A DNA stretch of 33,038 nucleotides from Euryarchaeota archaeon UBA258 (GTDB lineage: Archaea > Thermoplasmatota > Poseidoniia > Poseidoniales > Poseidoniaceae). The stretch covers positions 21,172 through 54,209 of the forward strand of contig DAPR01000060.1 of the NCBI GenBank assembly GCA_002502605.1. The letters run 5' to 3'. The notes below the pieces were generated by a model, which worked only from the letters and a program-made list of their open reading frames with translations, made no database searches and was not told the origin of the DNA. The position numbers were made by a program, and so were the translations under genes. Of the stretch, positions 22,771 to 31,757 are shown one piece after another (position 1 is the first letter of the stretch; every line of letters starts with the position of its first letter).

Positions 22771-25692
22771 ATGGCACAACAACAATGGCACGATGTGACT
22801 TCTGAAGACACTTATCTCACGCTCGAGACCCAGCCTGAAGGCTTAACTGCTTCTGAGGTTGATATTCGACGAGCTAAGTACGGTGAAAACAAGCTTCAAG
22901 AACCAGAAAAAACCCCAGCATGGTTGCGTTTCCTTTCCCAATACAACGATCCACTGAATTATCTTCTCATCGGAGCTGCTCTTGTTGCTCTCTCAATACA
23001 TCCAGATCAACCGGGAGATGCTATTTTCATTTTTTCAGTCCTCACTGCAAATGCAGTGTTTGGATTTTGGCAAGAAGGACAAGCGGAACAGGCGATGGAT
23101 TCGCTCAAACAAATGGCAGTTTCAAGTTGTATTGTTGTCCGCGATGGCGTTGAGCAAGAGGTGCCTACGCCCCTCTTGGTTCCCGGCGACGTGGTCAAAC
23201 TGGAAGAAGGCATCAATGTGCCAGCCGACGTTCGCGTGGTCGAGTCCTATCAATGCAAAATCGATGAATCATCGTTGACTGGTGAATCTGACAGCATCAA
23301 GAAAACCACAGCACCGCTCCCTACCGAGGCATTGCTTGCTGACAGGAATAACATGGCTTACATGGGCACAAGTGTAGCCACTGGCCGTGCTGTCGGCATT
23401 GTGGTCAACATTGGAATGAACACCGAACTTGGCCGGATTGCCAGTGATATCGTCGGCTCCGAGTCGCCAAAAACTCCACTTGAGCACAAACTCGAATCCC
23501 TGGGTAAATTCCTAGGCATTGTAGCGCTTGTCGTAGCGGTTCTCATGGTCGCCATCAAGATGATGATTGCCTATGGCGATCCGACAGCCGATTTGCGAGA
23601 GGTGGCGGTTGAACAATTCATCGTGGCCATTGCCATCTTTGTTGCCATTGTTCCAGAAGGCTTGCCAATTATCCTCGTTATTACGCTCGCGCTTGGTATG
23701 CGGAATATGGCCAAACACAAAGCGATTATTCGACGGATGAAGGCTGTTGAAACGCTTGGTTCCACAACTGTCATTTGCTCTGACAAAACCGGTACACTCA
23801 CCAAGAACCAAATGACTGCACGCCAATTGACCACTACGGATGGTACATTTACAATCTCGGGTGAGGGTTTCAAACCAAAAGGTGAACTCTCTTACAACGG
23901 AAAAACAGTCACTGGAGAGGAACTCTCAGGGTACCAAAGCGATCTTGCCTTCCGTCTCTCTGCCGCATGCTTGAGCCTGTGCCATAACTCTCAAATTTCT
24001 AAAGTGGATGGCCAATGGCAGGCGCTTGGCGACCCAACAGACTCAGCATGTGCTGTTCTTGGTTGGAAAATCAACGGTGATGTGAAGAAATTTGCTCAAC
24101 GCCATTCACGGCTCCATGAATTCTTTTTCGACACCAACAGAAAGCGGATGTCGGTGATTCACGACTACGAAGGCGAACGTTGGGTCTTTTCGAAAGGTGG
24201 TGCCGGTGGATATGTTTCTCTTGTGAACTGGAAAATTAAAGATGGAGAAATCGTTCCTATTGAGGATGCAGACTTCGATCTAGCCTCTGAGGCCAACAAG
24301 GCCATGGCAGGACAAGCCATGCGCGTCATCGCACTTTGTGCTCGTCGTCTTGATGAGGACGAAGACATCGAGGACATCAACACAGTTGAATCAAGCTTCA
24401 TTTTCCTAGGACTCGTTGGTATCATGGACCCGCCACGAGCCGAAGTGAAAGATGCTATTGAAGTGTGTCAGCGTGCGGGTATCCGCGTGAAAATGATCAC
24501 TGGTGATCAACAATACACTGCGGAAGCCATTGGTCGAGAGTTGAACATTACCGAAGGTGGCATACCACCAGTCAACGGTAATGCTTTGGCGGATTTTGAT
24601 GATGAACAATTGAGTGAAGCATCGGCTCAAGCCTCCATCTTCTCCAGAGTGACACCTGAACAGAAAATGCGGATTGTCTCATCACTACAAGACCAAGGGG
24701 AAATTGTGGCCATGACCGGTGATGGTGTCAATGACGCCCCCGCTTTATCTCGTGCGAACATCGGAATTGCAATGGGCATCGCAGGTACTGACGTAGCAAA
24801 AGACGCAGCAGACATGGTGCTCCAAGATGACAATTTTGCCAACATTGTCCATGCTGTTGAAGAAGGTCGCAAAATTTACCAGAACATTCGCAATTTCGTG
24901 CGCTATCAAGTCTCTACGAACGTCGCAGCTGTTGCTTTGATCATTATTTCGACGTTCTTGTTCGGTTGGAATTTACCTTTGACCGCAACACAAATTCTCG
25001 TGATCAACATCCTGATGGATGGTCCACCAGCCGTCGCGCTTGGTGTTGAGAAAAACCACGGGGATGTCATGAATCAACCACCGCGTCCAGTCAATGAAGG
25101 CATGCCTAATTTCAGTGACATCACCCTAATCTTCTATCTTGGTGCTGTGATGGTCACTGGGACGCTGATTGTCTTCTTCCTTGCAGGTGGTGGAGTGGGT
25201 ACTTGTGAGATCCACCCGCTGCAAACTGAAGCAGAGGCTCCATTCGATGTCGCCCAATGTGAACTTGGTGAGCGAATGGGCGATGAAGCCAATGAAGAAC
25301 AACTCGCCGCAATTCAGGCCTCGGAAACAAACAACGAGGAATTGTTCCAACATGCTCAAACCATGACGTTCTCCGTGTTCATTGTCTATCAACTGTTTAA
25401 CGTGATGAATTGCCGAAGCAATAGGGAAAGCGCGTTTAAACTTGGTTTATTTTCAAATCAATGGATCAATTACGCCTTTTTATTCTCGCTCGGTTTGTTG
25501 ATGTTCTTTGTTCAACTTGCAGAACACAGCATTCCATTCACCACTTTACTGGTGGGTGACTTGATGTCAACAACAGTGTTAACTGCGACGGATTGGGCAA
25601 TCATATTCGCGGTATCCGGTTCGGTTTTTGTCATCGACGAGTTCAGAAAATTCATCGTTAACTCGAACTTCTTCACACCAGGTTCTCAGTGA
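22771..25692 (+). CDS. P2-type cation-transporting ATPase, calcium-pump-like
   Basis: Ion pump of the P-type ATPase superfamily, 973 residues. It has the cation-ATPase N-terminal domain (1-75), actuator TGES (170-173), M4 VPEGLP (294-299), phosphorylation motif DKTGT with D338, KGGAGG nucleotide-binding loop, MTGD and TGDGVNDAPAL hinge. Ion-site residues match plasma-membrane Ca pumps rather than SERCA: E296 in M4, N717 in M5 with Ala at 720 where SERCA has a Glu, and N746-x3-D750 in M6. This predicts one calcium site. An acidic loop with two Cys (CEIHPLQTEAE to AQCELGERMGDEANEE) follows M7. ATG 22771 has a perfect GGTGA five bases upstream. Na/K-type specificity is less likely but not excluded. 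Confidence 0.9.
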   Translation: MAQQQWHDVTSEDTYLTLETQPEGLTASEVDIRRAKYGENKLQEPEKTPAWLRFLSQYNDPLNYLLIGAALVALSIHPDQPGDAIFIFSVLTANAVFGFWQEGQAEQAMDSLKQMAVSSCIVVRDGVEQEVPTPLLVPGDVVKLEEGINVPADVRVVESYQCKIDESSLTGESDSIKKTTAPLPTEALLADRNNMAYMGTSVATGRAVGIVVNIGMNTELGRIASDIVGSESPKTPLEHKLESLGKFLGIVALVVAVLMVAIKMMIAYGDPTADLREVAVEQFIVAIAIFVAIVPEGLPIILVITLALGMRNMAKHKAIIRRMKAVETLGSTTVICSDKTGTLTKNQMTARQLTTTDGTFTISGEGFKPKGELSYNGKTVTGEELSGYQSDLAFRLSAACLSLCHNSQISKVDGQWQALGDPTDSACAVLGWKINGDVKKFAQRHSRLHEFFFDTNRKRMSVIHDYEGERWVFSKGGAGGYVSLVNWKIKDGEIVPIEDADFDLASEANKAMAGQAMRVIALCARRLDEDEDIEDINTVESSFIFLGLVGIMDPPRAEVKDAIEVCQRAGIRVKMITGDQQYTAEAIGRELNITEGGIPPVNGNALADFDDEQLSEASAQASIFSRVTPEQKMRIVSSLQDQGEIVAMTGDGVNDAPALSRANIGIAMGIAGTDVAKDAADMVLQDDNFANIVHAVEEGRKIYQNIRNFVRYQVSTNVAAVALIIISTFLFGWNLPLTATQILVINILMDGPPAVALGVEKNHGDVMNQPPRPVNEGMPNFSDITLIFYLGAVMVTGTLIVFFLAGGGVGTCEIHPLQTEAEAPFDVAQCELGERMGDEANEEQLAAIQASETNNEELFQHAQTMTFSVFIVYQLFNVMNCRSNRESAFKLGLFSNQWINYAFLFSLGLLMFFVQLAEHSIPFTTLLVGDLMSTTVLTATDWAIIFAVSGSVFVIDEFRKFIVNSNFFTPGSQ

Positions 25693-25747
25693 ATTTTCCC
25701 CATGGGTTCATCCACATCTTCAAGAATGCATCATGGTAGGAACGAAT

Positions 25748-26962
25748 ATGTCAGCATGGACAACATCGCGGTTTGACGCTGGTTCAAACCAAGATTGGCA
25801 ACAGCGCCTGACAGAATCACTTCAGCAAGGTTCCGACTGGAGCGAGGCCATCCAACCGCTGGTCACAAAATTGGCCGATGGCAAGTCACTCTCATTAGAA
25901 GACGGACTCACCCTCTACAACCACCCAAACCTCAGTGAAGTTGGCCGGTTAGCCCATGAGGTTCGAACCGCTCGCTTCGATGACAAGGCGTTTTTCAACA
26001 GCAACGTCCATGTCAATCAAACCAATGTTTGCGTCTTAGCCTGTAAATTCTGTGCCTTTCGCAGAAGTAAAAAGGCAGAAGATGCGTACGCAATGGATGT
26101 CAGTGATTATCTCGAAGACCTTGGCCAGTATGCCGAATTTGTAGATGAAGTCCACTCCGTTGGAGGCCTTCACCCGGATTGGGGGATTGATCATTATGAG
26201 GAACTTTTCCGCGCAACAAAATCACGGTTCCCCCACATTACCATCAAAGCACTCACCGCTGTTGAAATCAAACATATTTCGCAACTTTCCAACCTTTCAT
26301 ACACTCAAACGCTCCAGCGGTTGAAGAATGCCGGCTTGGGTTCATTACCAGGCGGTGGTGCAGAGATTCTAGACGATGACGTCAGGGCCATTATCTGCAA
26401 CGGAAAAGAGAGCTCTCAAGAATATCTTGATATCCACAGGTCGGCCCACGAAGTCGGTCTTTCTACGAACTGCACCATGCTCTTTGGAACCATTGAAACG
26501 CTCAAACAACGAGTGGAACACATGATCTCTTTGCGCGAACTTGCCTCAGAAACGGGTGGATTCCAGTGCTTTGTCCCCTATCCTTTCCTCCCGGATGACA
26601 CACGCCTGCCTGAAGCACAATTAGCGACGGGAAGTGAGATTCTACGAACCATTGCAGTATCTCGTCTCATGCTTCATTCAATCCCTCACATCAAGGCATA
26701 CAGGATGAACATTGGCGATGAACTGGCAGAACTCGCTCTTCAATTTGGAGCAGATGATATTGACGGGACTGTTCAGAAGGAATCAATCATGCATTTGGCA
26801 GGATCGACAACACCACTGGATCATGACCGGTATCAATTATCCCGTTTGATCAAAGATGCAGGGTGCGTCCCAATTCAAAGAAACACCACATACGAACGGT
26901 TTGAAATCTATGTTGCACCTGAACCAAAACGCCGCAAAAGATTGACAGTTATACAGGAGTAG
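25748..26962 (+). CDS. mqnE: Aminofutalosine synthase (radical SAM), MqnE
   Basis: Radical SAM enzyme of the futalosine menaquinone pathway; joins the enolpyruvyl-benzoate made by MqnA to adenosine through SAM chemistry. From ATG 25748 (TAGGA seven bases upstream) it is 404 residues. The [4Fe-4S] motif CxxxCxxC is C95, C99, C102 (CVLACKFC) within NVHVNQTNVC. Also seen: GGLHPDWGIDHYEELFRATK, IKALTAVEIKHIS, LGSLPGGGAEIL, STNCTMLFGTIET and DGTVQKESIMHLAG. The KALTAVEI, TNCTMLFG and DGTV-x-E signatures fit MqnE better than the related cyclase MqnC. mqnA follows after eight bases; mqnD lies 3 kb further on. The N-terminal 50 residues are an uncharacterised extension. Confidence 0.85.
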   Translation: MSAWTTSRFDAGSNQDWQQRLTESLQQGSDWSEAIQPLVTKLADGKSLSLEDGLTLYNHPNLSEVGRLAHEVRTARFDDKAFFNSNVHVNQTNVCVLACKFCAFRRSKKAEDAYAMDVSDYLEDLGQYAEFVDEVHSVGGLHPDWGIDHYEELFRATKSRFPHITIKALTAVEIKHISQLSNLSYTQTLQRLKNAGLGSLPGGGAEILDDDVRAIICNGKESSQEYLDIHRSAHEVGLSTNCTMLFGTIETLKQRVEHMISLRELASETGGFQCFVPYPFLPDDTRLPEAQLATGSEILRTIAVSRLMLHSIPHIKAYRMNIGDELAELALQFGADDIDGTVQKESIMHLAGSTTPLDHDRYQLSRLIKDAGCVPIQRNTTYERFEIYVAPEPKRRKRLTVIQE

Positions 26963-26970
26963 ATGGACAA

Positions 26971-27777
26971 ATGCAAGTCCCTCAACCTCCCCAATGGAAG
27001 CGCATCATTGGTCGCGTGGCCTTCCTTAATTGCGATCCACTTTTTTATGGCCTTGGCGATGAGTGGCAAGTCCTTCCCGCTCCACCTTCATGGCTGACCG
27101 GACACCTCTTGAGAAGAGATTGCGTTTTAGCCCCCATACCAGCAGCAGACTATGCGCGACATGCAGATGAACTGGTTCTGGTCCCCGAAATAGGAATTTG
27201 CAGCAAAGGAGAAGTTGGAAGCGTTTTGGTGTTTGGCGATATGCCTCTGTCAACCATGAAAAGCATCGCATTGCCCACAGACTCTATGACATCCGTCGCA
27301 CTCCTCAAGTACATTTTGAAACAAGAACGTTTGAAGCCACAAACTCACTTGATGGGGCCTGATTTGACCACCATGCTTTCGAAATGTGATGGAGCCCTTC
27401 TCATCGGCGACCGTGCTTTGGAGGAAGCCAAAAAACAACCAGAACGCGTTCAACTCGATTTGGGTCAAGCATGGTTGAATCGAACTCAAAAGCCAATGGT
27501 TTTCGGCGTCTTCGCTGCCAGAAAAGACACACCAATAGAAGATGTGCAAGCCGCACAGGAAGCCTTGCTTCATCGCCTTTCACATTTTGAAACTGACCCT
27601 GTGACAAGAAAGGCAGTGATCGAATGGTCGATGTCCAAATCAGACCTCAAATATGAACGGTTGAACCGTTACTTTGGAGAAGTGTTCAATCGTTTAGACC
27701 CTGAACACATTCAAGGATTAGAAGAATTCTTGGTCGAAGCTTGCGATCTCACCCAAGGATCTTCATTCGCTTGGTGA
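26971..27777 (+). CDS. mqnA: Chorismate dehydratase, MqnA
   Basis: First enzyme of the futalosine route: dehydrates chorismate to 3-enolpyruvyl-benzoate. Periplasmic-binding-protein-like fold without a signal peptide. Seen: GRVAFLNCDPLFYGL near the N-terminus (family has G-R-I-x-x-x-N-x-x-P), SMTSVALLKYIL, GALLIGDRAL and KPMVFGVFAARKD. 268 residues, typical. It is packed against mqnE, surely one operon. Its last 15 bases overlap the 3' end of the convergent WD40-like gene. Confidence 0.87.
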   Translation: MQVPQPPQWKRIIGRVAFLNCDPLFYGLGDEWQVLPAPPSWLTGHLLRRDCVLAPIPAADYARHADELVLVPEIGICSKGEVGSVLVFGDMPLSTMKSIALPTDSMTSVALLKYILKQERLKPQTHLMGPDLTTMLSKCDGALLIGDRALEEAKKQPERVQLDLGQAWLNRTQKPMVFGVFAARKDTPIEDVQAAQEALLHRLSHFETDPVTRKAVIEWSMSKSDLKYERLNRYFGEVFNRLDPEHIQGLEEFLVEACDLTQGSSFAW

Positions 27778-29970
27778 AGTGTCTTCTTCATCTTTATCGG
27801 CTTGAGTCACAACCCTTCTGGTCTTCCGCTTCGTCGTTTCACTCACCTTGACAACTCGTTTTTTGCTGGTTGATCTCTTCTGGACAGGAGGGTTCCCTCC
27901 TCCATCCAAGCGCTTTCTCTTTACCGTTGTAATAGGGCCATCTCTGGTTGTGGATGGGCTCACTTTCCTACGCTTAGTTGATTGAACTGAGCGATCGCTT
28001 GTTGTGTCCCGAACAGTAGTTTTTGAATCGACGAGATGTTCTGTTTCGGTTTCAACATTGGATGCCTCGTTCAAAGTTTCTTGCTCAATTTGTGCGCTTG
28101 GTTCAGCCACGTCTTCTTCGGAACTAGGCTCATCGTCATCATCTTCATCAAAGATGTTGAGATCCATTCCCATTGTATTTTTAGTCCTCAATACAAGCAA
28201 AATACCTCCTCCAAGGAAGCCAAGGACGACGACAAAGAGAATGGGATAATCAGCGAATAAACCCACACCTTTCTGAGTCAAGGTAGGCTCTTTGACAACA
28301 CGTTCTTCCAATGTGAGTTCCAAAGGAGATTCAGTGGTCCACCAAGGAGACAATTCGACATCATTTGCCCCGTTTGCAGAGAGGACCACATGAATGGGAT
28401 GCATTTCTGCAAGATGGGTCAATGACGCATCAGTGGCTACAGTTTGCTCTTCGAACCTAACAGTCAACGGAAATGCCGGTGACGAGGACAGGTTGAAGGA
28501 AATAGTGTATTCAACACCGATGTGAGTTTTGAAATCATTTTGCGCACGAAGCGTCATGCCTTCGCTTACCGCGCAGTTCACGACCCCACCTTCTAATTGA
28601 CCTTCAGAAAGCATCAACGTATCTTTCCACTGTTCGAGGATTCTTGTTTCATCGTGGTTGGCACAAATGGAGCGGGCAAATAAATCGGTCTCGCTGACAC
28701 TGAGTTGGGCATCCTCAATGACAGATATTCTCGACATATTTCTGATTGAGGATGAAAGGACGATATCTAATTTGATCCGATCCTTAATGGTCATGTGCGT
28801 GGCGTTCATTTGAATCGTAAGTGAACGAATATGATCTTCGTGAGGGGAGCGTGAACAATCAGTTTCTATCTCGCCGCAGTAGGTATCCCACTGGTCCAAT
28901 ATCGCATCGCCATCGTCGTCATCATCAAGGGTATCAGGGATGCCGTCTCCGTCGAGGTCAGCTCCGGCCACACCCATTCCTTCAGGCACGGAATGGCTGC
29001 CATACCCGGCTAAGTGAAGAGTATTGGTCGCTGCGTAGAATTCTTGGATTAACCCAAATTGGTTTTCGATAGTTGCAACATCGAGCACCTGATGAGCCAT
29101 AGAGGTTGCTTCCACTTGTTCAAATGTAGAAGCATCCAGCGTCAGTAATCGCGGTTCATCTCCGTTTTCAGTCAAGTGAATGTAGGTCCCCTCGTGAGAC
29201 CATGACATGCCGCCTCCGGAAGTGAATTGCGTGCTTTGTAATGCACCACCGGCGAAGGAGAAGGTGTTCAACGCTCCGTCTGTGGTAAGCGATGCTATGC
29301 GTGTGTCAGTTGGATCAAAGGAACATGCTTTGAGTTCATTCCCAAACTCCCATTTTTTGGATGTTGGCGTACCATCGCTGTTCCACATAACCATTCGCCC
29401 AGACTCATCTCCGCTGATGATGTGGCCACCATTGCTTGTGAATCCGACACATGTTACGTCCGTGTTATGCTCACCAGTCAAACTCCGCTCAATTTCCATA
29501 TCGGAAATACGGATTAAATCAATGCCATTATTGGCGTTTGGAACGGCGAGCAAAAGACCATCTGGGGACCAGGCAATGTCCACTGGCCGTGCGTTTGCAG
29601 CTTGCTGCTTAGCGCTCATGGTCATGCTTTGGACATCGAATAATTGAATGGTGTCGACCTTCGTTTCAGAACCTGATATCGCAATGGCCAATTGAGAACC
29701 ATCTGGCGAAAATTCCAGCGATTCGACGGGTCGATCAACATCAATAATTTCAATCAGCGACAAATTTTCTAGCCACATAATGGCCATGTGGTCATCGTAA
29801 CCGCTCGCTAGGTATTTCTGTTCAGAATCAATGGTTAGGGCGGAAGATCCGTCAGTGGCCTCCACGGTAGTGGCGCCAGTGAACGATATGGTTGACGCAC
29901 TTGAGGCCACAGGCATAGAAAGCATCACCAACAGCATGAATGCAATGCAACCAGTTGATTTGACCCCCAA
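27763..29970 (-). CDS. Exported WD40-like protein with Ca-binding-type repeat, one membrane anchor and charged tail
   Basis: From the TTG at 29970 the product starts MGVKSTGCIAFMLLVMLSMP and ends its signal peptide at VASSA, and AGGGGAG lies seven bases upstream; the longer frame from ATG 30081 would bury this signal, so TTG is preferred (735 residues). Residues about 40-330 form beta-propeller repeats (SPDG, LASGYDDHMAIMW, IISGDESGRMVMW). A thrombospondin-type-3-like acidic repeat (DLDGDGIPDTLDDDDDGD, about 338-355) follows, then a beta-rich region, a membrane segment (about 571-592) and a cytoplasmic tail of 140 residues that is first acidic (DEDDDDEPSSEED) and then Lys/Arg-rich (KRRK, KRKR, KKR, KRKTRR). 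Looks like a surface scaffold or sensor; function unknown. Confidence 0.8.
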   Translation of the reverse strand: MGVKSTGCIAFMLLVMLSMPVASSASTISFTGATTVEATDGSSALTIDSEQKYLASGYDDHMAIMWLENLSLIEIIDVDRPVESLEFSPDGSQLAIAISGSETKVDTIQLFDVQSMTMSAKQQAANARPVDIAWSPDGLLLAVPNANNGIDLIRISDMEIERSLTGEHNTDVTCVGFTSNGGHIISGDESGRMVMWNSDGTPTSKKWEFGNELKACSFDPTDTRIASLTTDGALNTFSFAGGALQSTQFTSGGGMSWSHEGTYIHLTENGDEPRLLTLDASTFEQVEATSMAHQVLDVATIENQFGLIQEFYAATNTLHLAGYGSHSVPEGMGVAGADLDGDGIPDTLDDDDDGDAILDQWDTYCGEIETDCSRSPHEDHIRSLTIQMNATHMTIKDRIKLDIVLSSSIRNMSRISVIEDAQLSVSETDLFARSICANHDETRILEQWKDTLMLSEGQLEGGVVNCAVSEGMTLRAQNDFKTHIGVEYTISFNLSSSPAFPLTVRFEEQTVATDASLTHLAEMHPIHVVLSANGANDVELSPWWTTESPLELTLEERVVKEPTLTQKGVGLFADYPILFVVVLGFLGGGILLVLRTKNTMGMDLNIFDEDDDDEPSSEEDVAEPSAQIEQETLNEASNVETETEHLVDSKTTVRDTTSDRSVQSTKRRKVSPSTTRDGPITTVKRKRLDGGGNPPVQKRSTSKKRVVKVSETTKRKTRRVVTQADKDEEDTSPSE

Positions 29971-30105
29971 ACAATGACTCCCCTTAGGCTTTGATGAATC
30001 AATCAACACTGAAAACAAATCGGTGAATGCATCACAGATGTCGGAATTGTACAACTCAGGAAAAAATAGCGGTTGGTTCATCAAGGACGCGCCTGTCGAA
30101 CCTCC

Positions 30106-30993
30106 ATGGTGGCTCAGTTACCCCTCGATGAAAACGGCAACAAAATTGTTCGAATTGGTCACTCCCCCGACCCAGATGATGCGTTTATGTTCCACGCCAT
30201 GACAACCGGGGCCTTTCCAACACCAGGTTACAATTTTGTCCACGAATTGCAAGACATCGAAACCCTCAATCACCGTGCAATGAATTGCGATCTCGAAGTT
30301 TCAGCAGTTTCCATCCACGCTTTCCCCGAAATTTCCGAGAACTATGCTTTGATGAATTGTGGTGCATCGATGGGTGAGGGCTACGGCCCAATGGTTGTTT
30401 CAATGCAAGGTGCAAGTGAGTCAGATGTTCGAAGCAATGTCATTGCCGTTCCGGGCCTGAAGACCAGTGCCTACATGGGATTGCGCTTGGCTTGGGGGGA
30501 TTGTGAAGTTGCGGTTGTTCCTTTTGACGAAATCATTCCAAGAGTCCTCGACGGAACCTACTTGAGTGGCCTCATTATTCACGAAGGTCAACTGACCTAT
30601 GTTGAACACGACCTCCACGTTCACATCGACCTTGGCGTTTGGTGGAACGAGCGAACGGGTGGCTGGCCAATGCCGCTCGGAGGAAATGTCGTCCGGCGTG
30701 ATCTTGGCTCAAAAGCAATGGAAGACATCACCATGTACACTAAAATGAGCATCGAGTATGCTCTGAAGTCACCTGCTGAAGCACTTGAATTCGCCAAGAA
30801 ATGGGGCAGAGGAATTGACGATGAAACGAATAAGGAATTCGTGAGCATGTACGTCAATGACCGTACAATCGATTACAAACAAGAAGGTCGTGCTTCTATC
30901 CGCCAATTCATCACCGAAGGACAAGAACTCGGTCTGATTGATCAAACCTTTAATCCTGCAGAGATGCAATTTATTGGCTCAAATGAGTCCTGA
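30106..30993 (+). CDS. mqnD: MqnD-like 1,4-dihydroxy-6-naphthoate synthase
   Basis: Predicted to convert cyclic dehypoxanthinyl futalosine to 1,4-dihydroxy-6-naphthoate. Binding-protein-like fold related to MqnA. Family blocks: IGHSPDPDDAFMFHAM (MqnD has SPCPND-F-F), LQDIETLNHRAMNCDLEVSAVSIHAF, YALMNCGASMGEGYGPMVV and LGVWWNERTGGWPMPLGGNVVRRDLG. The DPDDAFMF form marks a subgroup distinct from bacterial MqnD, so the exact reaction is less certain than for mqnA. ATG 30106 gives 295 residues; no ribosome site is visible. Ends 12 bases before the next gene, whose ribosome site GGTGA lies just after this stop. Confidence 0.78.
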   Translation: MVAQLPLDENGNKIVRIGHSPDPDDAFMFHAMTTGAFPTPGYNFVHELQDIETLNHRAMNCDLEVSAVSIHAFPEISENYALMNCGASMGEGYGPMVVSMQGASESDVRSNVIAVPGLKTSAYMGLRLAWGDCEVAVVPFDEIIPRVLDGTYLSGLIIHEGQLTYVEHDLHVHIDLGVWWNERTGGWPMPLGGNVVRRDLGSKAMEDITMYTKMSIEYALKSPAEALEFAKKWGRGIDDETNKEFVSMYVNDRTIDYKQEGRASIRQFITEGQELGLIDQTFNPAEMQFIGSNES

Positions 30994-31005
30994 GTGGTGA
31001 TTTTT

Positions 31006-31488
31006 ATGGCTGAAAGGGCGCCGGGAGTGAGCCAATATGGTTCGGTTGACCCTGCCCCCCCGCAGAACACAGGAACACTCGATGAGTGGTCGGCTCTCCT
31101 GATGGATGAAACGGCACCAATGTTCCAAAGAATGCGAACAGTGTTCTCTCTTCGCAACGACGGGTCAGACGAAGCATGCTTAGCATTGTGTGGAGCGTTC
31201 ATATCAAGCAGTGCATTGTTGCGTCATGAATTGGCGTATGTGCTTGGCCAAATGCAAAATCCTACGGCCTTACCAACCCTCATCGAAAGGCTCAGCGACG
31301 ATCAGGAGCATATCATGGTTCGACACGAAGCTGCCGAAGCAATGGGGGCCATTGGCGACCCAAGCGTGATGCATGTGCTTGAAGCTCACCTCGGCGACGC
31401 GAATCCAGAAGTTGCAGAATCTTGCGAAGTCGCCCTTGATTTACTTCAATGGTGCAAATCACCACAGTGGGAAGAAACCAGTTGGTAG
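31006..31488 (+). CDS. Half-length deoxyhypusine hydroxylase-like HEAT-repeat protein
   Basis: 160 residues of HEAT repeats matching the C-terminal half of eukaryotic deoxyhypusine hydroxylase (DOHH), the diiron enzyme that hydroxylates deoxyhypusine on translation factor eIF5A. In order: SVDPAPP (13-19), matching the linker that opens the second half of human DOHH; FSLRNDGSDEACLAL; SALLRHELAYVLGQMQ with H74-E75; MVRHEAAEAMGAIGDP with H107-E108; and AESCEVALDLLQW. Spacing between the two His-Glu pairs is 33 residues, as in each half of human DOHH (56/89 and 207/240, from memory). Eukaryotic DOHH needs four pairs, so this protein would have to dimerise. ATG 31006 has GGTGA six bases upstream. 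Alternative: a general HEAT/PBS-lyase protein. Homology is strong; activity is inference. Confidence 0.78.
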   Translation: MAERAPGVSQYGSVDPAPPQNTGTLDEWSALLMDETAPMFQRMRTVFSLRNDGSDEACLALCGAFISSSALLRHELAYVLGQMQNPTALPTLIERLSDDQEHIMVRHEAAEAMGAIGDPSVMHVLEAHLGDANPEVAESCEVALDLLQWCKSPQWEETSW

Positions 31489-31547: not shown

Positions 31548-31757
31548 ATGCCACACGAACACATCACCCTCGCTCAAGCACCAAATGGTGAAATTGGCCC
31601 TCGCTGTGAATCATGCGGCGTCCGCCTTACTTTTGGCAACGCTATGGTTGTTGGCAAGTTCTACATGTGCTGGGAACACTACGTTGAATCAACCGGTGCA
31701 GACACCGCAACATCAGTCGGAGAAGCGGAAGAACGTTTCTGGATGACCAACGAATAA
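31548..31757 (+). CDS. Small CxxC-CxxH putative zinc-binding protein
   Basis: 69 residues from ATG 31548, which follows GGGGA. C20-x2-C23 and C41-x2-H44 (CESC and CWEH) are spaced like a treble-clef or zinc-ribbon site. The rest is short and polar, ending EERFWMTNE. No family recognised. The frame extends upstream to 31449, but that part overlaps the DOHH-like gene and lacks a ribosome site. Sits between the DOHH-like gene and priS on the same strand, 53 bases before priS. Confidence 0.65.
   Translation: MPHEHITLAQAPNGEIGPRCESCGVRLTFGNAMVVGKFYMCWEHYVESTGADTATSVGEAEERFWMTNE

What the first reader, a model, noticed from the sequence alone, without database searches (positions are those of the whole stretch)
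31006..31488. Archaeal protein equivalent to the C-terminal half of eukaryotic deoxyhypusine hydroxylase
Seen: HEAT repeats with LLRHELAYVLGQMQ and MVRHEAAEAMGAIGDP, two His-Glu pairs exactly 33 residues apart, a SVDPAPP segment before the first repeat and AESCEVALDL at the end. Known: human DOHH is a tandem duplication with His-Glu pairs at 56/57, 89/90, 207/208 and 240/241 and a very similar SVDPAPP linker between its halves (recalled, not searched). Archaea make deoxyhypusine on aIF5A, but to my knowledge no archaeal hydroxylase of this type is generally assigned. Inference: a homodimer of this half-length protein would rebuild a four-pair diiron site, so it could be either an archaeal hypusine-forming enzyme that resembles the ancestor of eukaryotic DOHH before its duplication, or a truncated gene acquired from a eukaryote.
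Basis: partly seen in the sequence, partly recalled or inferred. Interest (0 to 1): 0.82.

Follow-up and report, generated by a model that had tools for sequence, protein, structure and literature searches.

The report
Half-size archaeal deoxyhypusine hydroxylase homologue
A marine archaeon and its relatives carry a protein that matches one half of the eukaryotic enzyme that finishes the rare amino acid hypusine on a translation factor, an enzyme reported as missing from archaea, so it may be the missing archaeal enzyme and may show what the eukaryotic one looked like before it doubled.

The parts
31006..31488 (+). half-size (single-arm) DOHH homologue, 160 aa, HEAT-like helical hairpins
31042..31062 (+). 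SVDPAPP segment, residues 13-19, equal to the linker before the C-arm of eukaryotic DOHH
   Evidence: alignment; the pattern [STG][VIT]DP[AP]P is found in 127 of 128 archaeal ORFs
31225..31230 (+). His74-Glu75, aligned with human His207-Glu208 (and His56-Glu57 of the N-arm)
   Evidence: ligand and substrate roles from PMC9117371 passages
31324..31329 (+). His107-Glu108, aligned with human His240-Glu241 (and His89-Glu90 of the N-arm)
   Evidence: roles
30073..30993 (+). MqnD-like gene (PF02621) directly upstream on the same strand, probably co-transcribed; not part of the enzyme

Best explanation
The ORF encodes a single-arm homologue of deoxyhypusine hydroxylase. Two copies most likely pair face to face, as the N- and C-arms do inside eukaryotic DOHH, so that two sets of His, His and Glu hold two irons and the Glu residues also hold the deoxyhypusine side chain. 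The diiron site would activate O2 and hydroxylate deoxyhypusine on aIF5A, after deoxyhypusine synthase has attached the aminobutyl group to the lysine. Shown here: homology, predicted fold, conserved residues, and presence of aIF5A and deoxyhypusine synthase in the same genome. Inferred: dimer, iron, reaction.
Against: No biochemistry. Only one arm is present and no dimer could be modelled here. The gene is not beside aIF5A or deoxyhypusine synthase in any of 130 loci tested with this genome's proteins as queries, within the flanks held. It is missing in 31 of 127 sampled genomes of the order, some over 90% complete, and all 31 have COX1, so oxygen use does not predict it there. Many COX1-positive families outside the order lack it. 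Thermoplasma acidophilum is reported to contain hypusine (PMC9599864 passage); whether it has this gene was not tested, so the protein may not explain all archaeal hypusine. No spermidine synthase was found in 58 family genomes, so the aminobutyl donor may differ.
Confidence: 0.77

Rival explanations
1. It is a DOHH-family diiron hydroxylase whose substrate is not aIF5A, for example something linked to the menaquinone genes beside it.
For: It sits directly behind an MqnD-like gene: 115 of 130 loci hold that gene, in all 115 on the same strand and directly upstream. The window also has MqnA-like and MqnC/CofH-like genes.
Against: The substrate-side residues known from DOHH (the Glu residues, the Gly) are kept. 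No MqnD match appears in the nine DOHH loci from outside the order, so the neighbourhood is not tied to the gene, although those flanks are short. aIF5A and deoxyhypusine synthase are present.
Confidence: 0.12
2. It is a C-arm fragment of a eukaryotic DOHH gene that archaea acquired.
For: The archaeal proteins share the SVDPAPP linker with the C-arm and the window protein scores higher against it; one archaeal group joins the eukaryotic C-arms (98/84).
Against: The eukaryotic C-arms form one side of a branch without the archaea (100/95). Placing archaea with metazoan, stramenopile-like or fungal-like C-arms is rejected (AU p 0.024, 0.032, 0.0027; these three groups were chosen after seeing the tree). 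The gene is spread over several families of the phylum, with synteny inside the order. A transfer from before the last eukaryotic common ancestor is not excluded.
Confidence: 0.08
3. It is an ordinary HEAT/PBS-lyase-type scaffold and the His-Glu pairs are incidental.
For: Pfam sees only HEAT-type repeat families above their cut-offs, HEAT_2 and HEAT_PBS.
Against: DOHH outscores natural generic HEAT proteins by a wide margin, NblB and CpcE models are far under their cut-offs, and the pairs are kept in every ORF counted. The one generic HEAT hit in the survey (L042) has no His-Glu pairs.
Confidence: 0.02

Closest known systems
Human deoxyhypusine hydroxylase (DOHH, PDB 4d4z)
   Same: 45-47% identity over the C-arm, same fold, His-Glu pairs, Gly after the first pair, SVDPAPP segment
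   Different: The human enzyme has two arms and four His-Glu pairs in one chain; this protein has one arm and two pairs
Other eukaryotic DOHHs (fungi, oomycetes, animals, protists)
   Same: Found by a profile of archaeal single arms; the same pairs, split over two arms
   Different: Two arms per chain; the 27 used in the tree were selected for that, and their arms form two separate groups
Generic HEAT_PBS proteins (NblB, CpcE, L042)
   Same: HEAT-like helical repeats
   Different: Models far below family cut-offs; L042 lacks His-Glu pairs

Membership tests
Canonical eukaryotic DOHH | Sequence similarity specific to DOHH over other HEAT proteins | tested here: met
Canonical eukaryotic DOHH | Two arms, eight HEAT repeats and four His-Glu pairs in one chain | tested here: not met
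   One matched stretch and one set of two pairs in 128 of 128 archaeal ORFs; no second copy found in its own 79% complete genome at E <= 10
DOHH arm (filed here as a single-arm homologue) | His-Glu pairs 33 residues apart, with iron-anchoring and substrate-binding residues | tested here: met
   121 ORFs with spacing 33, 7 with 32; Gly in 128 of 128; Met three before the second His in 126 of 128
DOHH arm (filed here as a single-arm homologue) | Fold of the DOHH arm | tested here: met
   Predicted model only:
Hypusine pathway | aIF5A with the modified lysine and deoxyhypusine synthase in the genome | tested here: met
   All 105 carriers in the 389-genome sample also hit deoxyhypusine synthase, but so do 380 of 389, so this is weak evidence
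DOHH | Diiron centre and O2-dependent hydroxylation of deoxyhypusine | not testable with these tools
   Needs purified protein
DOHH | Two arms facing each other (here: a homodimer) | not tested
   Only a single chain was folded
NblB / CpcE (PBS-lyase HEAT) | Score over the NCBIfam equivalog cut-off | tested here: not met
   22.2 of 300 and 19 of 330 bits

The most novel reading that the evidence does not exclude
Eukaryotic DOHH arose by duplication and fusion of a single-arm, homodimeric archaeal enzyme of the kind still found in Thermoplasmatota, and that archaeal enzyme makes hypusine on aIF5A today.
Probability: 0.5. Interest if true: 0.87.

Novelty: new variant of a known kind. Interest (0 to 1): 0.74.

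Why it matters
Hypusine has been found in several archaea, yet papers from 2016 to 2021 state that no archaeal DOHH homologue is known. This gives a concrete, small, expressible candidate in a widespread marine archaeal group. It also offers a living one-arm form of a two-arm eukaryotic enzyme, so the origin of eukaryotic hypusination by duplication can be tested directly.

Tried and rejected
Generic HEAT protein: rejected by scores and residues. Broken or truncated gene: rejected, since the half-size form is the rule among the archaea seen. A second, N-arm-like partner in the same genome: not found at E <= 10, but the assembly is 79% complete. Full-length prokaryotic DOHH: among the 80 best of 243 loci in named genomes the one non-archaeal record was a contig of a Verrucomicrobiaceae MAG whose reading frames look split and eukaryotic by eye, read as contamination; the other 163 loci were not shown. 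Viral contigs: 27 stretches matched a pattern, none encoded a relative. Pfam PF01287 missed aIF5A, so a longer NCBIfam model was used. The relatives option did not go beyond the phylum in the rows shown, so Asgard and other archaeal phyla are untested. A first tree build kept one eukaryotic protein only, because of a wrong spacing limit in my script; it was redone. The redone tree used 27 two-arm proteins that I picked by hand, 26 from the 120 listed and one, and 25 archaeal arms; proteins without two clear pairs were not picked. Before the His-Glu counts I dropped L054 (eukaryotic) and L042 (generic HEAT, no pairs). These counts are partly biased: 79 of the 128 loci came, whose patterns hold these residues; the other 49 ORFs and the 120 proteins did not. 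COX1 counts include one match (G071) with E only 7.4e-4.

Full report
What is there. The window is part of a 1.88 Mb, 79% complete assembly. The ORF at 31006-31488 gives 160 residues from the ATG, or 164 from a GTG at 30994. Above Pfam's cut-offs there are only HEAT_2 and HEAT_PBS. No NCBIfam model reaches its cut-off.

Relation to DOHH. Against PDB sequences the best match is human DOHH, 228.5 bits in all: 124.6 bits to the C-arm with the SVDPAPP linker aligned and 104.9 bits to the N-arm. A profile built from eight members outside the order also finds DOHH first, at 313.6 bits, and its 120 listed hits in the protein database include DOHHs from shark, chytrid fungus, oomycete, insect and amoeba. 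These archaeal proteins are thus DOHH homologues as a family, not only this sequence.

Active site. A review lists His56, His89, Glu90, His207, His240 and Glu241 as anchoring the irons, and Glu57, Glu90, Glu208, Glu241, G65 and G214 as binding the substrate (PMC9117371, passages). The window protein has H74-E75 and H107-E108 at the C-arm positions and G81 at the place of G214. Of 128 archaeal ORFs from fetched loci, 128 have both pairs (121 spaced 33, 7 spaced 32) and the Gly, and 127 have the linker pattern; each has one matched stretch and one set of pairs. Two ORFs were left out before this count: L054, eukaryotic, and L042, a generic HEAT protein without pairs. Of the 120 listed database proteins, 120 have both pairs. 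Some loci come from the same genome twice, and 79 of the 128 were found with patterns that contain these residues.

Why a dimer. A review describes DOHH as a symmetrical dyad of two four-repeat arms that together form the binuclear iron centre (PMC8153317, passages). A one-arm protein would need two copies to do the same. This is inference; no complex was modelled.

Pathway. The genome has one aIF5A hit (104.3 bits, cut-off 75.45) with SKPGKHGSAK; that this holds the modified lysine is recalled. A deoxyhypusine synthase is over the cut-off of an NCBIfam equivalog (368.6 of 350) and has GGGISKHH, which I recall as the catalytic-lysine motif. A second synthase-like gene sits with an AdoMetDC-like and an agmatinase-like gene. 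PMC10407285 (passages) describes speB, speD and speY clustered in Marine Group II/III, reports arginine decarboxylase activity for such SpeD proteins, and assigns SpeY to homospermidine. I found no PF01564 spermidine synthase in this genome or in 58 genomes of the family, and no BpsA in this genome. The aminobutyl group may therefore come from homospermidine; that would give the same deoxyhypusine (inference).

Distribution. In a 389-genome sample of the phylum 106 genomes match. Of these, 96 are among 127 of the order and 10 among 262 others. One of the ten is the generic HEAT protein L042, leaving nine carriers in six families. All nine have COX1, against 75 of 262 outside the order (P 9e-6 by genome; 2e-4 to 4e-4 by family for 55 or 48 families), as expected for an O2-using enzyme. 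Within the order 87 of 96 carriers and 31 of 31 non-carriers have COX1, so oxygen use does not predict the gene there. Deoxyhypusine synthase is found in 380 of 389 genomes, and none of the nine without it is a carrier; being nearly universal it says little. In named genomes 243 loci encode relatives; of the 80 shown, 79 are archaeal and all half-size.

Neighbourhood. Of 130 loci, 115 hold the MqnD-like gene and 117 PriS; none has a match to this genome's deoxyhypusine synthase, aIF5A or speD within the flanks held. In all 115 the MqnD-like gene is on the same strand, directly upstream. Both families of the order share this, which points to vertical inheritance in it. The nine loci from outside the order show no MqnD match.

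Tree. With 27 eukaryotic proteins cut into arms and 25 archaeal proteins (117 columns, linker left out), the N-arms (99/93) and C-arms (100/95) each form one side of a branch. The archaeal proteins lie between them, in two groups: the order plus one family, and the others. Few columns for so many rows, as the program warns. Keeping all archaea together is not rejected (AU p 0.383). Nesting them with metazoan, stramenopile-like or fungal-like C-arms is rejected (p 0.024, 0.032, 0.0027). A recent eukaryotic origin is thus unlikely. The root is unknown, so the data fit an archaeal single arm as ancestor but also an older duplication with loss, or a very early transfer.

Novelty. Statements that no archaeal DOHH is known were seen in PMC5178350 (2016), PMC6105217 (2018), PMC7773846 (2020) and PMC8153317 (2021) (passages only). 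My searches for an archaeal DOHH listed no paper whose title or abstract start describes one; most of these lists were capped (30 of 52, 25 of 1,299, 14 of 14, 15 of 112, 12 of 13, 30 of 52, 15 of 31 papers) and the library is open-access only. Some relatives already bear the JGI name deoxyhypusine monooxygenase, while NCBI names are HEAT repeat domain-containing or hypothetical protein. I therefore rate it a new variant of a known kind.

Noticed in passing
25628-26962, 26971-27777 and 30073-30993 (+): Three genes that look like futalosine-type menaquinone synthesis (radical SAM with CofH/MqnC region and two PF02621 genes) lie close together, the last directly before the DOHH homologue.
   Followed up: partly
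L002 1486-3898 (same genome, contig C75): speB - speD - synthase-like cluster, with no PF01564 spermidine synthase in 58 family genomes; resembles the published arginine decarboxylase / SpeY cluster of Marine Group II (PMC10407285, passages).
   Followed up: partly
31548-31757 (+): Small 69-aa protein with CESC and CWEH by eye, perhaps a zinc ribbon, between the DOHH homologue and priS; matched in 115 of 130 loci; no Pfam or NCBIfam family over its cut-off.
   Followed up: no
27763-30084 (-): 773-aa WD40-like beta-propeller protein, with a possible transmembrane segment and a charged tail by eye, between the menaquinone genes.
   Followed up: no
L054: A contig in a Verrucomicrobiaceae genome bin carries a DOHH in split reading frames and looks eukaryotic by eye, so the bin seems contaminated.
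   Followed up: partly
Survey of the order: The gene was not found in 31 of 127 sampled genomes of the order, including some over 90% complete, so it may have been lost more than once.
   Followed up: no
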